A DNA stretch of 64,000 bases, taken from assembly GCF_037975245.1 (NCBI RefSeq), contig NC_092576.1, forward strand, positions 7,497,501-7,561,500, read 5' to 3'. Each line of letters opens with the position of its first letter. Within the stretch, counting starts at the first letter, position 1. Made by a program: the position numbers and the translations under genes. The notes below the pieces were generated by a model. It had not been told where the DNA came from. It saw only the letters and a program-made list of their open reading frames with translations, and ran no database searches. This document shows, in pieces, positions 1 to 53,300 of the stretch. The DNA is from Apostichopus japonicus. Taxonomy: Eukaryota; Echinodermata; Holothuroidea; Aspidochirotida; Stichopodidae.

Positions 1-904
1 ACTAAAACTTACTGAAATAGCGCATACTGTCCAAACGTTGAAATTATTGTAGGCCTTCTTTCCTTTGGGAAGTGGAAATCTCGCTGCGCCCTGCCAACAC
101 TCCCCTACTCATCCCCAAGCCCCCCCCCCCCTGCATGGTACGGCCCTGATAATGTTGATGTTTCTGGAAACAGCAGGGTATATGTCTTCATCGTTAACAC
201 ATTTATTATACTTCTTCTTTGTAATATTTCAACATCTTATTAAAAGACGAAATTTATACTTGTAGTTGCATTTATGCAAATATTTTTGAGAAATATTTTT
301 GCGTAACCTGGGGTCTCTCTTCGGAATCTTTCTGATAAGGTTCATGGTGATTTTTTAATAATAGAAAATATGTTATGCTTGTTTTTTAGGAACATTTACT
401 AGCTGATCTAATATGAAATTACTTTTAATATACCAAGTTTTGTATATAGGCATGGAATTTGTATTATCAACAACTACATCTACCACACCATATCTCGAAA
501 CGGGTAACGGCACTGTGTCTTAACAACTAATATGCTTTCTTTTGAATTCGTTCTTTCGTAGCAAGTAGGAGATGTTAAAATTATAATCAACGCTTTTACT
601 TTCTTTATTAGTTTATACTTACCTAATGACTAAGAAAATGTATTTGATACTATACTTTCTTTGACATTGGTATTATAGGTGGTAGAAATAAACTTTTAAT
701 AAAAGCAAGAATCTTTTATTGTATATCAACTTTGTCTCGATGAACGTGTAGTCTGTCTGCCCACATGTATAACAGAAATCAAAATCAAACACAACTGTTA
801 GCAAACTGTTAATCCTGCAAACTCCTCTTACGGCTTTCTCTTTTGTGTTCACCCTGCTCATTATGCGGTCTGTATTGTGTGTGTGTGTGTGCGTTTGTTT
901 TGTA

Positions 905-15306: not shown

Positions 15307-17969
15307 ACTAAAACTTACTGAAATAGCGCATACTGTCCAAACGTTGAAATTATTGTAGGCCTTCTTTCCTTTAGGAAGTGGAAATCTCGCTGCGCCCTGC
15401 CAACACTCCCCTACTCATCCCCAAGCCCCCCCCCCCCCTGCAGGGTACAGCCCTGATAATGTTGATGTTTCTGGAAACAGCAGAGTATATGTTTTCATCG
15501 TTAACACGTTTATTATACTTCTTCTTTGTAATATTTCAACATCTTATTAAAAGACGAAATTTATACTTGTCGTTGCATTTATGCAAACATTTTTGAGAAA
15601 TATTTTTGCGTAACCTGGGGTCTCTCTTCGGAATCTTTCTGATAAGGTTCATGGTGATTTTTTAATAATAGAAAATATGTTATGCTTGTTTTTTAAAGGA
15701 ACATTTACTAGCTGATCTAATATGAAATTACTTTTAATACCAAGTTTTGTATATAGGCATGGAATTTGTATTATCAACAATTACATCTACCACACCATAT
15801 CTCGAAACGGGTAACGGCACTGTGTCTTAACAACTAATATGCTTTCTTTTGAATTCGTTCTTTCGTAGCAAGTAGGAGATGTTAAAATTATAATCAACGG
15901 TTTTACTTTCTTTATTAGTTTATACTTACCTAATGACTAAGAAAATGTATTTGATACTATACTTTCTTTGACATTGGTATTATAGGTGGTAGAAATAAAC
16001 TTTTAATAAAAGCAAGAATCTTTTATTGTATATCAACTTTGTCTCGATGAACGTGTAGTCTGTCTGCCCACATGTATAACAGAAATCAAAATCAAACACA
16101 ACTGTTAGCAAACTGTTAATCCTGCAAACTCCTCTTACGGCTTTCTCTTTTGTGTTCACCCTGCTCATTATGCGGTCTGTATTGTGTGTGTGTGTGTGCG
16201 TTTGTTTTGTATTCTGACCGAGGACTTGAACAAAAGAATCCCAGGTCCTCGGTTGTGATTTCTAAAGAATCACCACGTCCTCGGAAGAATTCTATTGTAT
16301 GGGGTATTGTTAAGGTTAGGGTACGTGGATTTGAACAATGGAAAATACAGTGGGGTCCTCGGTCTGAATGTAATTCAAACATGTGTGTGTGTGTGTGTGT
16401 GTATTTGTCCCTCCTGTTACTGTAACTTGCCATCCAGCCTCTGAAGAAGATCCTGCTAGGATCAAAACGTCAGACCCTCTTACTTTTGCACATTCATGTT
16501 AATCAAAAATGTTAAACCATTTCAGATTTGACAGCTTATCCCGTAGTGAGACTAATGCAGGTTAACTGTTAATATCTTACGCAAAGTCTTGAGGGTTTAA
16601 ACAGACCAGTAGATTATACACACAGACAGAATAAATTATTTCATCTACATCGGCTTCCTCCTCCTCAACCTCCTCACCCTCCACAACCCCCTCCTTATCC
16701 ACTTAAAGAGCTTTAAATCGAGCCATTTCAACCATGAGTCGTAGCGTTTTAACGTTTCACAAAATTTGGTTTAATATATGATATAAGTGAATACCATTCC
16801 TAATAACTTAAGAATTTGATAGCGATTGTAGTGTGTTTTTCTATGACAGAAATGAAGCAAATGATTTAATTTCTCCCTGAATTGGACACATCCGGATTTT
16901 ATCGAGGAATGACAACAGTTAACCTTAAAGCATCTGGTAGTTGTTGGGGGTTGAAAACTTGCCGTGACATTTTTTATTTTTTTTCCTTTTTTTTGGCATC
17001 TTATATTTATTTCGCCGGTGAAGTGACCGCGAGGGCATCTGTCGAAAGAGACAGGAATCGAGCAAAATATGTACATATCTGCGCAATGATTAAAATACAC
17101 CAGGAGTAATGAAAACACATAATGGAATATGATACTAGCACTGAGTAGGAAGGTACTATTGAGTGTGGGGGGGGGGGTTGAATAATGATGGCCGGCCTGG
17201 GGGAGGGGTCTAAGGGGAGGGGGTGTCCCCCTCCCCTTTGGATTTTTTTTGCATTTCCAGGTGGCCTCAGATGCAATTTGGTGCAATATAGCACACTTCA
17301 ATACCCACTCTAAACTACAAAGTGACGATATATATCTTTCCAAGGCAAAATGAGAACACATTTGCGTTTGACGTTTGCGGAAAAAAAATAAGTAACAAAA
17401 TATGTAATCCATTACATCATCCGGCACCTCCTCAGCTCTTCCATGTGACCTATACGACCAGTGGCGGAGCTGGGGTATTAGTCAGAGGGCGAGAATGGTC
17501 TGTAGGGGCGCTTTCGACACTATCTAAGCGGAGCGCCACCAAAGGTTGGCACGGAGCGTACAGGACTTTTTTTTAAGGTAAAGATACTCCCTATAGCCGG
17601 AAATGACCCTTTCCGGGCCTTGCTAATTTGCAGTTAAACGAAAAATAAATAAGTGTCACCGCCAACAAAATGTGACAAATGTCAATAGGTAGATGAGAGC
17701 ACAATAAAAAAGTAAATAATAGCGAATAAGTAAAAAGTGGTAAAAAGCTGAAAAGGGCGCCAGCAGTTCATTTGAGTACGTCGGGGGTGTGGGGGGGGGG
17801 GGCATCCGCCCCTCTGACTGTATGGACGCTCCGCCACTGTATATGACATTGGAAACAATGTCAAGTTCGTATGCGTTAGTTTCTCAACCTTTCAAGAAAG
17901 AAAAAGGAAAGTACAAACGTTGTCACATGATGAGATTGTTTGGCAACTAGTACTTATACAAACTATTGA
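15307..17969. repeat. Right copy of the segmental direct duplication
   Basis: Same order and orientation as 1-2893, with scattered substitutions and small indels. It contains the same inverted GTCCTCGG repeat (about 16212-16369), the hammerhead-like motif (16441-16471), a left half of the first MITE with its TSD GATACTAG (about 17130 on) and the full second MITE (17459-17839). The block between the first MITE's middle and the ctacaaagtgacg string is deleted relative to the left copy. No exon seen. Confidence 0.93.
17459..17839. mobile_element. hAT-type MITE (duplicated copy)
   Basis: Orthologous to the insertion at 2395-2763, with the same flanking octamers TATACGAC and TATATGAC. It was therefore carried along by the segmental duplication rather than inserted independently. 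Confidence 0.82.
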
Positions 17970-44300: not shown

Positions 44301-47300
44301 ACTGTTGTCTTTTAAAGGTAGTCCCTTCAGTATATGAGCTGTAACAAAAAGCCCCTGCCCTATTGTCCTTTTTTGGTTGTTTTATTATTTAAAATAAGTA
44401 GATTCCCCCCTCCACCCTAAACCTCAAAGACATGTTTATTTTAACATACATCTGCAGCTCCATGATCAGTATCTGTGTCATCTTCAGAGTGTATTTAAAC
44501 AACCACTTTTTTTGTTTCTAGGAAATCCTCCACATAACCCAGCTTATCCACCTCCTCAGCAGGGCAGTTACCCAATGCAACCAAACCAGCCAGGGGGAGG
44601 GGCACCACCTCCATACTACCAGCCTCCAGCTGGACAGCAGTATCCTCCTCCTGGACAGCAGTATCCTCCTCCTGGACAGCAGTATCCTCCTCCTGGACAG
44701 CAGTATCCTCCAGTCGCTGGACAGCAGTATCCTCCACAGGGAGGATATGTTGCAGCTCCACAACAACCTGGGCAGGTACTGTATAGGGTAGCATACTACT
44801 GTACATGTATGTAATTACCCCATTGACTACCACACTAAATCATAAAAAGGTACTGTATAGGATAGCATATATACTACACATAATTGTCCCATTGACTAAC
44901 ACACTAAATCATAAAAAGGTATTGTATAGGGTAGCATGCTACATATATTTACCCCATTGACTAACACAGTAAATCATAATAAGGTACTGTATAGGGTAGC
45001 ATACTACATATAATTATTCGATTGACTAACACTGTATAAGGTAGAATACTACATATAATTACCAGTTGACTAACACAGTAAATCATAAGAAGGTACTGTA
45101 TAGGGTAGCATACTACATATAATTATTCGATTGACTAACACTGTATAAGGTAGAATACTACATATAATTACCCGTTGACTAACACAGTAAATCATAATAA
45201 GGTACTGTATAGGGTAGCATACTACATATAATTATCCCATTGGCTAACACACTAAATCATAAAAAGGTACTGTATAGGGTGGCAAACTATATTAATTACC
45301 CCTTTGACTAACACAATAAACCATAATTTAGGTACTGTATAGGGCCGCATAGTACATATAATTACCCGATTGACTAACACAATAAATCATAAGAAGGTAC
45401 TGTACTGTATAGGGTAGCATACTACATATAGTTGCCCCATTGACTAACACACTAAATCATAAAAAAGTTACCGTATAGGGTGGGTAGCATACTCCATATA
45501 ATTGCCCCATTGACTAGTTTAACACACCAAATCATAAAAGTAATGTGGTCACTACAGTGAGTCTAGATAGAAGTGCTCACTAGTGCTAAATCCTACCCAG
45601 TGCTGGTTAGCCATTCAGTCTGGAAATAAAAATCAACAAATTGCAGTAACTTAGGGCCTATTACACCTTCTCAGCAGATGTATTCTTGTCGCCTCCCCTC
45701 CTCCCCCCCCCAACCCCATGATCAATGGTTGGTGCAATTTCCAAATTTAAGCTTATACCACTCTATACTGTACTTTCATATCAATGCTTTAAAGCACTCA
45801 TACTGACAGTATGAACAGTTCCTACCTTTATCTGATTCTAATTAATGGTTTTACCACTCTATACTGTCCTCTCATATTGTGCTTCAAAGCACTTGTAGTG
45901 ACAGTTTGATATGTACAGTACTGCTGAATACATACTATAAAATACAAAGGCTTTAAAGGACATGAAAGACCAGTTATAAGGGGGGAGGCCCAGGGGGAGG
46001 CCTAGGGGAGTAGGACCAGGGGGGGGGGAATTATCCCGACTCAGTGTAGTGCCGCAGGGCACAATATATACGAATATATTCAAAAAGCAAAGATTGAGTA
46101 TTAGCTTCCTCTCAAATTCCAACAATAACTGTCAATACAGTAGAACAAAGACATGTACATAACCATGTAAAGTACAATCCCTAATTAAAACAAATAATTA
46201 ATTAACACAGTGGCACTTCAGCTGTAGTTTATATACTTCAGTACAGTAGGTGACAAAAGGTTGTTCTCATTGAAAATGTTAAAGGATTACGTTACACAAG
46301 TGGTTGGCCGAACAGCATTTTATCTGGTCGTTGGGGGGGGGGGGGTGGGGGAATTTTCAAAGTGATACAGAATTACCAATATGTACACCTTAAGTACATC
46401 GGAGGAGAGACGTGTAGTCTTGGTGAAAAAAAAACACCAGTGTTGGGCCAGTGAAACTCCCCTTTGGGTGGATCATAGGCCTACAGTACCACTTACATGT
46501 AGGCCTACCCCTTCTTATATCTCAATATAAATCAGTATCTCCGCAAGTTATAGAGGGTGATACCCATTTATCACTTCACAGTACAGGTCTCTTTCGGGCT
46601 ATTTTTAGTAACAATGTAATCCCGAATTAGGATGTTACAAGTTATGTCTAGACATATCGAATTGGAAGAATCAAAAACAGAAGGAGAGAAAATTTGCTCA
46701 TCGCTGATGATCAGAGAACCCTCATTAAGACAGCAATTTAGATGGATATTCAGGTGGTTGGCAATGGGACTTTTGTATGAAGGGAAAACAATGCCCCCTC
46801 CCCCCCCCCAAAAAAAATGTAATTCCATTCTAGAGTACACATACAGGTAGTTGCACTTTAATTGTGATAATAATCCACACCAGTTTCAAGCCATACAGCA
46901 AGCTTGGAGTCACCCCCCCAAAATATACCCAGGTTTTGTAGAATACCTGTACATACATATTCATAAGAAAATTTCAAATGTGACTCTCATGGTCTCAACA
47001 TATCATCAATGTATGTCAGTGACTTGAGATGATGGGGGTGGGGGGGGGTGGGGGGTGGGGGGGGTGTGTGGACTGACTGCACAGGGGGATTGGGATACTG
47101 TACTTACTGCACAGTTTCATATCTTCACTTCACTTCATCAACTCCCCTGTCTCCTCGCAACGACTGCACTAGAGCAAGTTTACTCTGTAAGTATGTGAAT
47201 CAAGAGTTTAAGATATTGGGTGATGACCTTCCGAACCGTGTAAGGTCCTGTAAGTTATAGCCCAAAATGACCAGTGCTGTTGTTTTCTCGTCCGCTCATA

Positions 47301-50300
47301 GACTGTGATTGTCCGCCAGACGCAGATCCAGCCAAACGACTACCTGGGCTTCGCCATCTTTGTCACCATCTGCTGCTGTCTGCCTTTTGGCATCGTTGGA
47401 ATCATCAAAGCTACGGAGGTAAGACATAGACAGGAACAATTGTATGTGGTCATTTTCACAATCAGTGGTGTAACTTTTGTACACTCAGGGCCAAAATTTC
47501 AAACACCATATATATTAAAATTTTTACTAACATCACATGTTAAAGGGTTCAAATTTTTGTAACTTCAACTTTTCGGAGCTTAAACATATACGTTTATGGG
47601 TGTAATTTTTCGGTGACTGTATGACTCTAGGAAACTTTAAGCAAAAAGATATATTTTTAAGCAACCATATTTACACAGTCTTAAAACAGTACTCTGTTTC
47701 AAGTAAACTTTAAAATGCTTATCATTATATGTTACTTAAAAATGAAAAGGATTTGGCAGAAATTTTTTATTACTATTGCAGATATTTCCATGTTAACTGA
47801 AAATTTATTGGAAATCAAGGATTGTTTTTCTTAATTTTAACTTTAAACTATTTAATAAAAAGATAAGGCCAAGTCAAACACCCTAAATAATGTCTCCTCT
47901 CAGAGGGCTAATATCCAATCCAAGTTGCACAAAAATCCATGCAGTTTTGCAAAAGTTGGAATTTTCCCACTTACGCGTTTCGGAGGTGACGTTAACATTT
48001 TACATGTGTTTCGGAGGTGACAAAAATGTTTACAAGTTGTTGTAAAGGCTTTTTTGCTAATTAACAAAGAATTAAACACTTAAACTCAATGAATATTCAT
48101 AACATCTTTAATCAAACACTGATTTAAATAAAAAATATCTCTGCCAAGTAGCAGAGAATGTATGTCAACTACCTGTACAACTAGTGAAACAAGTGATGAA
48201 TACAGAACACAGAATACAATAGTTTTATGTTATAAAAAATAGGTAAATGTCAGGTAAAGCAAATAAGGGCATTTAAAAAGCAATTGAAAACATTGGGCTG
48301 AAGTCTCTTACTGTGGCACTCATATTGCAAATGATTATCTCACATACAACATATTGTATATACCTTCAGTCTCTTTTGTTTCGGAGGTGACGCTAAACGT
48401 TTACACAACCCAGAAGGCTTGATTCATGCTAAAACACATAGAACTTACCTTGGAAAGTATGAAAAACATTAGAAGGATATGTTGATAATATTTTAATGGC
48501 ATTCATGATACTAGTGCTGTGACTGCTTTTGCTGCCATTCATGATAACTTGGAGACAATACTGTATCCATTCAAAATCACTTGGTTAAATTCACAGTTTT
48601 GGCTAATTGCATATGAAATATTATACCACAAAGAAGTGATTAACATTGCGTAGCCATTAGCCATTCTGACTGCTAGTTACAGTACATGTTGGTTACACTT
48701 TTGGCAGTGAAACTGACTGTCACATTCCTGTAACCTTTTACAAATTTGAAGAGGACATTCAGTCAATTATTCTGGAAAAAACACTTCATTAACATGACCT
48801 AACCACATTCTATCAAAGTGTTAGTGAAAAGTTAGGTAAAGACTTGTCAAAAACTGCATAAATGATGGGCTAAAATCATTTAACAGCAGCTTGGCCTTGT
48901 TCACATTTAAGAATGCACCCGTACTTCAAGTCCTCAAGGGAAATTAATTCCCTTAGTGTGAACACTCCTTTACTCATACTTCAAGTCGGCATGCAGTCTT
49001 AAGAATTTATCCTACATTCTCAGTAAATGTGATGTGAATGGTCGGAGACTTAATGGTGACCCGAGATTTCCGATATATCAAGTTGCTATTGGGTGGGTAG
49101 TACGTACATGTATGTGTTTGTCAGAGCGTTGCCCATCTTAACAGAAACACTACCAAACCATGCTATTCGTGAACCCATTTCATTTTCTTTGAACCAATTT
49201 GACCAACACTGCAGAAAAGATGCGGTAACGGTTGTGAGACAAAAACAAACTAAATGACAGTCCACTTAAATCTACTGTTATAACCTTAAATTCATTGTAC
49301 GCCGTACTGACAGATTTTTGAAGAGGCCAAACTCTGTAATTTGATGGTTATTTCAAAACGGATGATTTTGGGTTCGGTTGCTATGGAAGTTAGTAAAAGG
49401 CTAAAACCGTTACGTCTGGCCTGGCCTATAATGAAGTTGCATTTACTAGCTTACTGTATACAGATACAGTAGACCTTAACATTAAATGCCTTTGATGTTA
49501 GATTAGCCTCAAATGCGACATCAAGCAGTAAAACACTGACTAGCAATATCGTTTGCTCATCCACTGAAGGGTTTGGAAGAAATTCAAATCTGGGTTAAAA
49601 TGTTATGGTAATGCCAGTATGGAGTTGTTTGAATACAGTTAACTGTTTATGTGCGATGGTGCCGTGCAGTGGTGTACGGAGTAGTATGTACTAGTACAGA
49701 ACATAAGACAATGGCAAAGCACAGGGGGGGGGGATGTAAACAGCTGATATGACCTTTATACGCCTGCGCAGTATATTAATCTCGCAAACAGACGAAACTT
49801 AGTCGTTCTGAAATGTGAATGCTTCTTGTTCTTAACTAGTTTATCCTCCTTGCGGACTTAATATCAATAATCGCCCAGGTTGCATTCTTAAATGTGAACA
49901 AGGCCTAAGAGACCATCTGGAGCAACAATCTAGAGTTAAATGAGTTTTCACTCTATAAAGGTTAGTTGTTTGTAATTGGTTGTTAAAGGCATTGAAGACT
50001 CTCCCCAAACCGTGTGCGGCCATCTGAAAAATGTAACTTTCTGTTCCTTGCAAGTGACGTTTTGTTCGTGTCGCTACAAAATGCAGACAGTAATGAAACG
50101 TGATACCTTGTTATCTTTAGCTGGACCTGAGATGTCCATCGCTGTATCGTTTGTACAATGTGCTGTGCTGTAGCTGTACTGACTATACACTAGTGTCTAT
50201 TAACGATGGTAGCAAGCTGTGTGTGTATTTTCTGGGATCAATGGTGGTGTCTAACACTTCTGTTACACCTCATCGAAACTAGGTCAGATTACCAGCATCA

Positions 50301-53300
50301 GACGTTTCCTTTTGCACCAGTCTTCACTCTTCACACTCTTTAAGAAAAGGGAGGGGAATTCCCTATTCAAATTTTATGTATTTTTGGGAAATCTCTTTTC
50401 AGACAATGTGCTGTGATGACAACAGCTCATTAAAGAAGCAATAAGATTCTTTCTTTTTGCTTCAAATGTTACAGCAGCAGGTCTACATATTGTGAACAAA
50501 TATTCTGAACTTTTGTAGGATATTTACCTGGACCAAATAGTAGAGCCCTCCGTGGTTATAGTGGGAATCATGCAAATTAATGTGTATACTGGTACAGGTC
50601 AACATGGTGCAAAATTAAACCTGTGAACATGTACTCAACAGCACTGTAGAACTCACAGAAGGTAACATATAACTGCAGCACAAGATATATGCACTAGTAG
50701 AATATTTCAGAAATATGCTCAAACAAAGGGATAGTTCAGTATATTACACGTAAACAATCAATGTCACCTCCGAAACGATAGCAAAGACCACAGGCAGATT
50801 GAGCTAATATCTGATAAATTTGTCCCATGTTAATAAAGTTTTAAAAACTGCATGTTTGGTGATTGTGATCTTTTATGGACAGCACTTCATTGCTAATCGA
50901 TCATTTCATTCAAGTTTATTAATAGCACTAATGTAAGCAATGGTACACTATCTCTTGTCCAGAAAGGGGAAAAAGTGGCAAAAAAACACATATTTGTAAT
51001 TTATTCATCAACTGTGCATGTGAGAGTTTCATTAATACTTTGTTCAGTTTGTTACAGTGTTTTCTAAGGTAGATCAAGTCATCCATTAGCATATGATGGT
51101 ACACAAACAGCAGAAATGTAAAAAATGTAGTGTTAACAATATTGTGTCACCTCCGAAACATTAATTTACAGTTTAATTCAAATTTAACATAATTAATAAA
51201 GGACCTTTTAAAAGATATTATCATACTGGTTGCTACACCTCTACAGAATTACTGTAATATGAGTTTTAGCCAAGGAAGATGTTTATTGGATCAGTAGAGA
51301 TCAAATTTCCAACTAACCTGTTTCGGAGGTGACAAGGTGTTTCGGAGGTGACGCATGTTAACGGAAAGTTAAGAATCTCCCAGAAATTAAAACGACTGGT
51401 CATGTTGTACAACTTTTACTCAAATATTACGTTAGGGGGTGAGGTATATTTTAATAAGTTCAAAATGGCTATACTATTGTTTACATAAATCTTGGACTGA
51501 AGAATGCTTTGTTTCGGAGGTGACGGAAAAGTTAACGGAAAAGTTAACATTAAATTTGAAATTAACACAATTATTTTAAGAATTCCAAATGAAAGATATT
51601 TTTTGGCCCAGATATTAGACACATTAGTTATTGTAATAATGCAACCTTACTTAACAAAATTTACACTGCTTAAATAGAACTTAGTTGCAGTCAAACTTAG
51701 GTACCAATTGTTAACGGAAAATGTCACCTCCGAAACGGCAAAATCTAGCCACCGTTCCTTGGAGAAGGAAAGGAAGGAAACCTGGGGAACACAATTGCAT
51801 TTTAGTTTGGACACTTGTTGATAATATCAACCAAATAAGAACTGGAAAATACCTTCCACCAATAAGTACAGGCTCTGACAAAAACAGGGTAGTTGAGAGT
51901 GTACGGCTGAACTAGCATATTTTAAGCATATTTATGGCCACCAAATCAACCTGAAGAAACCGAGAAAGTTCGTTAAGCTACCCAAGGTAGACTTCACTTA
52001 GGATGGTCAAATGGCAAAAAATCTAAGAATTCTGGTATTTGGTCACTGAGTTACAAAGCAATAAGTGCCAATATTGGAAGTTAGTACACCACTGATTGTG
52101 AAAATGACCATGTATGTATGTATGTATGTATATGTGTGTTTGTATTAGGGCTGTGAGTTTTCGTTTAAAGACCTAAACGTTTAAACGGCCGATTTTTCGT
52201 TCGTTTGAACGTTTAAACGTTCGCGAATATCGCGAGAAAACGCCGAGTATAAAGGCGTGGGGTCCAGGGAGCCGCCCTAGGGCCCTGGTGGGGCGAAGAC
52301 CCCGGAAAAGGAAAAGGAATTTTTTGCGTGTCTGGCGATAAAAAAATTCGCAGTTGAGGATGCAAAATACTGACAACTTTTTGAATTTAAATTGTCACGA
52401 AGCTGATGAAAAATTTTAAATGACAAGTTATAGTAGCTGTATTATGTTATAAAATGAAAAGAGATTTAATCTGTTTCACAATCTTTAAAAAGTTACAAAA
52501 AGTTAAAAAAAGTTTAAAAAGTTACAATCTTTAAAAAGTTTAAAAACTTACAGAACCTCCGATATTATGAAACAAAAAACGTTCGGCAAAGCCCCGTTTC
52601 TAGAATGCCTAACAATGAATAGCGCGCACTAAACGTACATCAGTTTACAACTGCAGTACGGTTTAACCTAACTTAAATACTACGGTAGGATACTGTATAT
52701 GTGCCCAGAATTTTCCCAGGTACCTCGCCAAACAACTGCGCACTCATCCCCTGTCTAACACCTGTTTGTTAACATTTTTGGCACGTTTCCAAGAAACGTT
52801 TCATAGAGTATTCCCCATGATACACGAGGAACAGTTCATACACGCAGCACAAGATATCAAGCTATGGTCATCTTTATGAAAGAAAACCTTGTAATAAAAT
52901 ATGTTTTAGGCCACACGGCATGATTAACTAATGCTTAACATTATTTCCATGTTCTTGTAGAAAACGTCAAGTTCGCAAAATACAATTGGTTGTGTTTTTG
53001 TAGTTACGTGAGATCCATAACACACGAGGTGGTTAGGCTATTTGTTATACACTTAACTGTGGTAGGACATTATTTTTTCCGTATTTTTGGAAATTCTAGA
53101 AAATATTTTCTCTTCCCCCCCCCCCCACCCGCTTAACACCAGATGTGGTCTTACGGTTTATTCATAAATGGGTGTACTAGAGCCTTGTTTACATGACATT
53201 AGTTGCATTTAGCACGATTTGCCAGTTTCGCGTGAATTTTTCGAAAGTGTTTTGCTTGATCTTTCGTAAAATTTGAAAGGTGTACCAACTTACTTTTTGT

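What the first reader, a model, noticed from the sequence alone, without database searches (positions are those of the whole stretch)
47448..52109. 4.66 kb TIR element with nine exact copies of GTTTCGGAGGTGAC
A perfect 25-bp inverted repeat with a near-perfect 8-bp target duplication bounds a non-coding element. Inside it a 14-mer is repeated exactly nine times, six on one strand and three on the other, in two clusters (47977-48391 and 50763-51736), frequently beside GTTAAC or GTTAACGGAAAA. The surrounding sequence is unrelated between copies, so the 14-mer seems to be held by selection, most simply as binding sites for a transposase or a host factor. Large non-autonomous elements with so many interior, not strictly subterminal, sites are unusual.
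Basis: partly seen in the sequence, partly recalled or inferred. Interest (0 to 1): 0.76.

Follow-up and report, generated by a model that had tools for sequence, protein, structure and literature searches.

The report
Sea cucumber transposon with repeated sites
This is one copy of a recently spread, gene-less jumping element, almost certainly from a sea cucumber, whose nine identical short motifs are probably docking sites for the protein that moves it.

Summary
The element is real: ends 47448-52109, exact 25-bp TIR, nine exact 14-mers inside and none elsewhere in the window. Genome-wide the 14-mer occurs 336 times (reversed control 1); 99 of the 100 listed places fall in spans of this family. 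By my pairing, 30 left ends are of this type, 22 of them in 4.65-4.76 kb copies. Over the left 1433 bp, 22 of 28 copies differ from their common sequence by under 2%.

One claim is wrong: the target duplication is 4 bp, not 8 (perfect in 24 of 26 copies, ATAT in 19).

One feature is new: 8 of 9 14-mers have GTTWAC 0-8 bp downstream, a bipartite site. In nine older copies the 14-mer is better kept than random windows (p 0.0036); in young copies only one of three sites stands out.

No transposase was found in what was read; five inserts stayed unread. The element is non-coding (longest frame 89 aa), so it is presumably moved in trans. The 4-bp AT-rich duplication suggests a Sola2-like enzyme, unproven. 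The sites are most simply bound by transposase or a helper, as in CACTA and Ac/Ds.

The parts
47448..52109 (.). Non-autonomous DNA transposon, 4662 bp, no coding capacity seen
   Evidence: 22 TIR-to-TIR copies of 4.65-4.76 kb by pairing; longest frame 89 aa
47448..47472 (+). Left 25-bp terminal inverted repeat, begins GG
   Evidence: exact inverted match; 125 places genome-wide at <=2 mismatches, reversed control 0
52085..52109 (-). Right 25-bp terminal inverted repeat, ends CC
47444..47447 (.). Left 4-bp target duplication ATGT
   Evidence: 4-bp duplication perfect in 24 of 26 copies
52110..52113 (.). Right 4-bp target duplication ATGT
47977..47996 (+). Bipartite site 1: 14-mer 47977-47990 + GTTAAC at +0
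48008..48033 (+). Bipartite site 2: 14-mer 48008-48021 + GTTTAC at +6
48378..48404 (+). Bipartite site 3: 14-mer 48378-48391 + GTTTAC at +7
50750..50776 (-). Bipartite site 4: 14-mer 50763-50776 + GTTTAC at +7
51132..51159 (-). Bipartite site 5: 14-mer 51146-51159 + GTTAAC at +8
51320..51333 (+). 14-mer 6, no GTTWAC within 8 bp; in tandem, 5 bp before site 7
51339..51362 (+). Bipartite site 7: 14-mer 51339-51352 + GTTAAC at +4
51511..51536 (+). Bipartite site 8: 14-mer 51511-51524 + GTTAAC at +6 (a second GTTAAC at 51543)
51710..51736 (-). Bipartite site 9: 14-mer 51723-51736 + GTTAAC at +7
47570..47583 (+). Degenerate 14-mer TTTTCGGAGCTTAA near the left end (the only further match in the element at <=4 mismatches)
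48893..49905 (.). Nested element inside the transposon, 28-nt inverted ends, 96% complementary
   Evidence: most of the stretch is also matched in older copies L213, L214, L216
49980..50329 (.). Second nested MITE-like piece; absent from older copies L212 and L216, at another place and reversed in L213 and L214

Best explanation
It is one copy of a large, non-coding cut-and-paste DNA transposon family that spread recently in this genome. A transposase made elsewhere, acting in trans, cuts at the GG...CC ends of the 25-bp TIR and inserts into TATATA-like targets with a 4-bp stagger, giving a 4-bp (mostly ATAT) duplication. The nine 14-mers, eight of them with GTTWAC 0-8 bp (mostly 6-8 bp) on the 3' side, are binding sites for that transposase or for an accessory DNA-binding protein: three on the left (529-944 bp from the end) and six on the right (373-1347 bp from the end). 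They would let the two ends be recognised and brought together. Shown: family, ends, 4-bp duplication, low divergence of copies, absence of long frames, bipartite build, better conservation of the 14-mer in older copies. Inferred: trans mobilisation, protein binding, and the kind of enzyme (Sola2-like from the duplication alone).
For: 336 exact 14-mers in 671.6 Mb against 1 for the reversed pattern; 99 of the 100 listed ones lie inside spans of this family. 4-bp duplication perfect in 24 of 26 copies with different flanks. Over the left 1433 bp 22 of 28 copies differ from the per-column commonest base by under 2%, the closest pair by 0.28%. GTTWAC within 0-8 bp downstream of 8 of 9 sites, binomial p 4e-13, with pattern and reach chosen after seeing the sites. 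14-mers better kept than random windows in older copies. The site has a G+C-rich and an A+T-rich part, as that paper describes for CACTA subterminal repeats, where TNPA-type proteins bind (PMC2613891, abstract and passages); Ac transposase binds repeated subterminal AAACGG (PMC3260210, abstract and passages).
Against: No copy with a transposase gene was found, and no binding was shown. In 28 young copies two of three left sites are kept about as well as average (intact 27, 22 and 24 of 28; mean over all 14-base windows 21.5). In 6 B/C-type copies the right-hand 14-mers are not better kept as a set (19 of 24 exact, p 0.70), one copy having lost two sites. GTTWAC halves are not better kept in the 9 older copies (p 0.73), only in the subsets of 7 and 5 (p 0.04). 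B-type copies lack the left cluster and the two inner right sites.
Confidence: 0.6

Rival explanations
1. The 14-mer/GTTWAC sites are host transcription-factor or insulator sites carried by the element, for example from the promoter of the lost transposase gene, and not needed for transposition itself.
For: Sites lie deep (up to 944 bp from the left and 1347 bp from the right end) and point in both directions; GTTWAC resembles common host-factor half-sites (recalled, not tested).
Against: 99 of 100 listed 14-mers lie in spans of this family, and the genome total is far above the reversed control, so there is no sign of a host network of exact sites.
Confidence: 0.22
2. The repeats are historical: a short unit was duplicated within the ancestral element (slippage, gene conversion, filler DNA) and then copied with it; no function.
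For: The copies share these sites by descent, so the nine sites are the only independent sample; two of three sites in young copies decay as the background does.
Against: Apart from GTTWAC the flanks and spacers differ while the 14-mer is identical nine times; older copies keep the 14-mer better than other windows.
Confidence: 0.13
3. It is a non-autonomous member of a superfamily other than Sola2 that can leave about 4 bp (Sola1, Chapaev, Ginger), or of an undescribed one.
For: The superfamily was guessed from the target duplication alone; no transposase was found. 4 bp is given for Sola as a whole (PMC10741241, passage).
Against: Ginger ends are 5'-TG...CA-3' (PMC10741241, passage), these are GG...CC. 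Academ is given 3 bp (PMC5199201, passage). AWWT/ATAT duplications are reported for Sola2 (PMC3627910, passages). Chapaev and Sola1 termini were not compared.
Confidence: 0.45

Closest known systems
Sola2 DNA transposons
   Same: 4-bp AT-rich target duplications (AWWT, ATAT among them); short TIRs, 12-13 and 21 bp in the cases seen (PMC3627910, passages)
   Different: No Sola2 transposase seen here; terminal sequences not compared; no motif arrays are mentioned in the passages seen
CACTA (Spm/En, Tgmt*) transposons
   Same: Many copies of a short subterminal motif with a G+C-rich and an A+T-rich part, asymmetric between the ends; TNPA recognises those of Spm/En (PMC2613891, abstract and passages)
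   Different: Ends are GG...CC, not CACTA; 4-bp duplication, against 3 bp for Tgmt*; sites here reach 0.94 and 1.35 kb inwards
Ac/Ds (hAT), Ds2 class
   Same: Non-autonomous elements with shared ends, filler interior and repeated transposase-binding motifs (PMC3260210, abstract and passages)
   Different: 8-bp duplication, 11-bp TIR, AAACGG hexamers within the terminal 200 bp

Membership tests
Non-autonomous cut-and-paste DNA transposon | Terminal inverted repeats and fixed-length target duplication in many copies at unrelated sites | tested here: met
   24 of 26 perfect 4-bp duplications; TIR at 125 places
Non-autonomous cut-and-paste DNA transposon | No transposase reading frame | tested here: met
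Sola2 | 4-bp AT-rich (AWWT) target duplication | tested here: met
   ATAT in 19 of 26; the other 7 depart from AWWT on at least one side but have at least three A/T of four, or one mismatch between the sides; feature from PMC3627910 (passages)
Sola2 | Sola2-type transposase in the autonomous partner | tested here: inconclusive
   no long transposase-like frame in the copies read; five inserts and most right halves were not read, and no profile search was made
Sola2 | Sola2-type terminal sequence | not testable with these tools
   no library of transposon ends on hand; the 2009 paper cited for Sola is not held
hAT / P / Merlin | About 8-bp target duplication (P 7-8, Ac/Ds 8; Merlin recalled) | tested here: not met
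   4 bp
Ginger | 5'-TG...CA-3' termini | tested here: not met
   ends GG...CC; rule from PMC10741241 (passage)
CACTA/EnSpm | CACTA-type termini | tested here: not met
   ends GG...CC, and 4-bp duplication against 3 bp for Tgmt*
CACTA/EnSpm | Arrays of a short subterminal motif | tested here: met
   (resemblance in build, not in sequence)

The most novel reading that the evidence does not exclude
An animal transposon lineage with 4-bp ATAT duplications (Sola-like) has independently evolved a two-part recognition system like plant CACTA: TIRs for the cutting enzyme plus a deep, asymmetric array of bipartite sites (14-mer + short spacer + GTTWAC) for a second DNA-binding protein.
Probability: 0.15. 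Interest if true: 0.6.

Novelty: new variant of a known kind. Interest (0 to 1): 0.4.

Why it matters
Subterminal binding arrays are best known to me from CACTA and hAT elements. Here a family with 4-bp duplications carries nine identical, mostly bipartite sites reaching more than 1 kb inwards, and most copies compared differ from their common sequence by only about 1%. That gives a ready system for asking what the array does. Otherwise the finding is a well-delimited but ordinary kind of mobile element.

Tried and rejected
Autonomous partner: the 59 left ends were paired by hand with right ends: 30 of the window's type (22 copies of 4.65-4.76 kb; 6 with inserts, 7.3-14.3 kb; 1 of 4.07 kb; 1 whose right end was not found), 16 of B/C type, 13 old or partial. 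Odd copies read without finding a transposase-like long frame: L207-L210 (L209 is not among the 59), L218 (a right-type end, also not among them), L219-L221, L222-L223, L224-L225. L210 holds a 275-aa frame that reads like a host DnaJ protein (name recalled) and L223 a 929-aa reverse-transcriptase-like frame. Frames were judged by length and eye; no profile search was run. Not read: the inserts of the copies on C3 (8177823), C7 (5127949), C9 (28665541), C20 (11325334) and of a B copy on C4 (27214757); the inner part of C16:22815569; most right halves of the young copies; 9 of the 16 B/C copies.

8-bp duplication families (hAT, P, Merlin) were dropped. Rfam: no match at 46500-53000 at gathering thresholds. 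Papers: the 13-mer TTTCGGAGGTGAC is in no held paper; of 2,113 papers in a search on A. japonicus and transposons the 8 listed do not name this family in title or abstract start. Pattern TTTCGGNNGTGAC with up to 2 mismatches gave 24 matches (9.8 expected): the nine known and 15 with 2 mismatches scattered over the window. B/C copies were set aside as evidence of transposition because they share outer flanks. Conservation was retested without L216 and L217, which had also come up through the 14-mer itself; the 14-mer result held. Dropped before the duplication count: one pair with a broken right end (L142/L178), L141 (no right end) and L157, L158 (no exact left TIR).
Full report
Where it is. 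The window is G000:C16:7497501-7561500 of a 671,581,487-base genome in 35 contigs. Size and contig number fit the Apostichopus japonicus assembly (671.60 Mb, 34 scaffolds, 23 chromosomes of 18.21-46.02 Mb; PMC10344927, abstract and passages), and C16 and C23 measure 46.04 and 18.20 Mb, so this is almost certainly that sea cucumber; that is inference. The element sits just downstream of an exon that reads like a CD225/dispanin protein (frame; name recalled, not searched).

Observation. Nine exact GTTTCGGAGGTGAC, none with 1-2 mismatches elsewhere in the window, shuffles mean 0.25. The TIR is exact. The genome holds 336 exact 14-mers, 173 and 163 on the two strands, against 1 for the reversed pattern. 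Of the 100 places listed, 99 lie in spans of this family; three of those spans (on C2, C3 and C11) I drew from partial matches. The TIR at up to 2 mismatches occurs 125 times, reversed control 0.

Family. The left 1433 bp gave 42 matches, 30 of them over nearly the full length at 90-100% identity, with only 40 of 101 candidates scored; the right 980 bp gave 40, again 40 of 73 scored, so these are lower bounds. Pairing ends by hand gives 22 copies of 4.65-4.76 kb, 6 longer ones with inserts, one of 4.07 kb and one without a right end. Over the left 1433 bp, 22 of 28 copies differ from the per-column commonest base by less than 2%, the other six by 2.7-5.4%; the closest pair differs by 0.28%. 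Ten copies lie in the listed part: four have all nine exact 14-mers (C1, C3 twice, C7), the others 8, 7, 7, 7, 6 and 5.

Ends and duplication. For 26 copies with both flanks, a 4-bp duplication is perfect in 24 and has one mismatch in 2. 19 are ATAT; the five other perfect ones (ATGT, ATGT, ATAC, AGAT, ATAA) agree on both sides, which excludes a longer TIR. Position +5 is A in 21 of 26 and -5 is T in 14 of 26, so the target resembles TATATA.

Bipartite site. Aligned on the 14-mer, 8 of 9 sites have GTTAAC or GTTTAC starting 0-8 bp downstream (offsets 0, 6, 7, 7, 8, 4, 6, 7 in window order); the ninth stands 5 bp before another 14-mer. Of all positions in the element, 2.1% have such a hexamer within reach (binomial p 4e-13). 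Genome-wide the composite pattern gives 265 matches, some sites counted twice, reversed control 0; these are mostly copies of the same nine ancestral sites, not independent cases.

Conservation. In 28 young copies the three left 14-mers are intact in 27, 22 and 24; the mean over all 14-base windows is 21.5: weak evidence. In nine older copies (L157, L158, L211-L217; 8-16% background mismatch, gaps counted) 40 alignable sites hold 17 exact and 34 mismatches, where random windows give 71. With windows shared between copies p is 0.0018 and 0.0036 in a second run that also masks GTTWAC; the subsets of 7 and 5 copies give 0.0018 and 0.002. For GTTWAC the nine give no excess (p 0.73), the subsets p 0.04. 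In six B/C-type copies 19 of 24 sites are exact but two lost sites in one copy remove any excess (p 0.70). The pattern fits constraint while lineages are mobile and free decay after insertion; that reading is inference.

B and C types. Copies of about 2.4 kb and 4.1-4.2 kb share about 487 bp of the left and 920 bp of the right end but lack the left cluster and the two inner right sites. The ones read, on contigs C4, C14, C19 and C20, share at least one outer flank with each other, several both, so a larger repeat that contains them was probably copied; they say little about transposition.

Coding and the missing partner. The longest stop-to-stop frame in the element is 89 aa. Three long copies that were read are explained by other DNA inserted at differing places. 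No read copy has a transposase-like long frame, judged by length and eye. The partner may be lost in this assembly, hidden in unread DNA, or share only the TIR.

Mechanism and comparison. Most likely a transposase acts in trans, with the bipartite array bound by it or by a helper. The 4-bp AT-rich duplication is the reported Sola2 feature (PMC3627910, passages) but no transposase or terminal sequence was compared, so I do not file it there. In build the array resembles CACTA subterminal repeats with their G+C-rich and A+T-rich parts (PMC2613891, abstract and passages) and the repeated Ac/Ds hexamers (PMC3260210, abstract and passages); termini and duplication length exclude membership of both.

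Noticed in passing
window 48893-49905: Nested element with 28-nt inverted ends (96% complementary) inside the transposon, largely present also in older copies.
   Followed up: partly
window 49980-50329: Second MITE-like piece, apparently with TTAA-type ends; absent in L212 and L216, reversed and elsewhere in L213 and L214.
   Followed up: partly
L161-L166, L196-L201, L220: B/C-type copies on contigs C4, C14, C19 and C20 share outer flanking sequence, so a larger repeat unit has probably been copied between chromosomes.
   Followed up: partly
L223, 793-3579 of its reverse strand: A 929-aa open frame that reads like a non-LTR reverse transcriptase, inserted in the copy on contig C14.
   Followed up: no
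L219: Two left ends 122 bp apart in the same orientation on contig C22 (the inner one truncated).
   Followed up: partly
window 430-729 and 15737-16036: Direct repeat 99% identical, 15.3 kb apart (also 113-388 / 15420-15695 at 96%).
   Followed up: no
window 44774-45516: Array of repeats spaced mostly about 65 bp, next to a frame for a proline-rich stretch.
   Followed up: no
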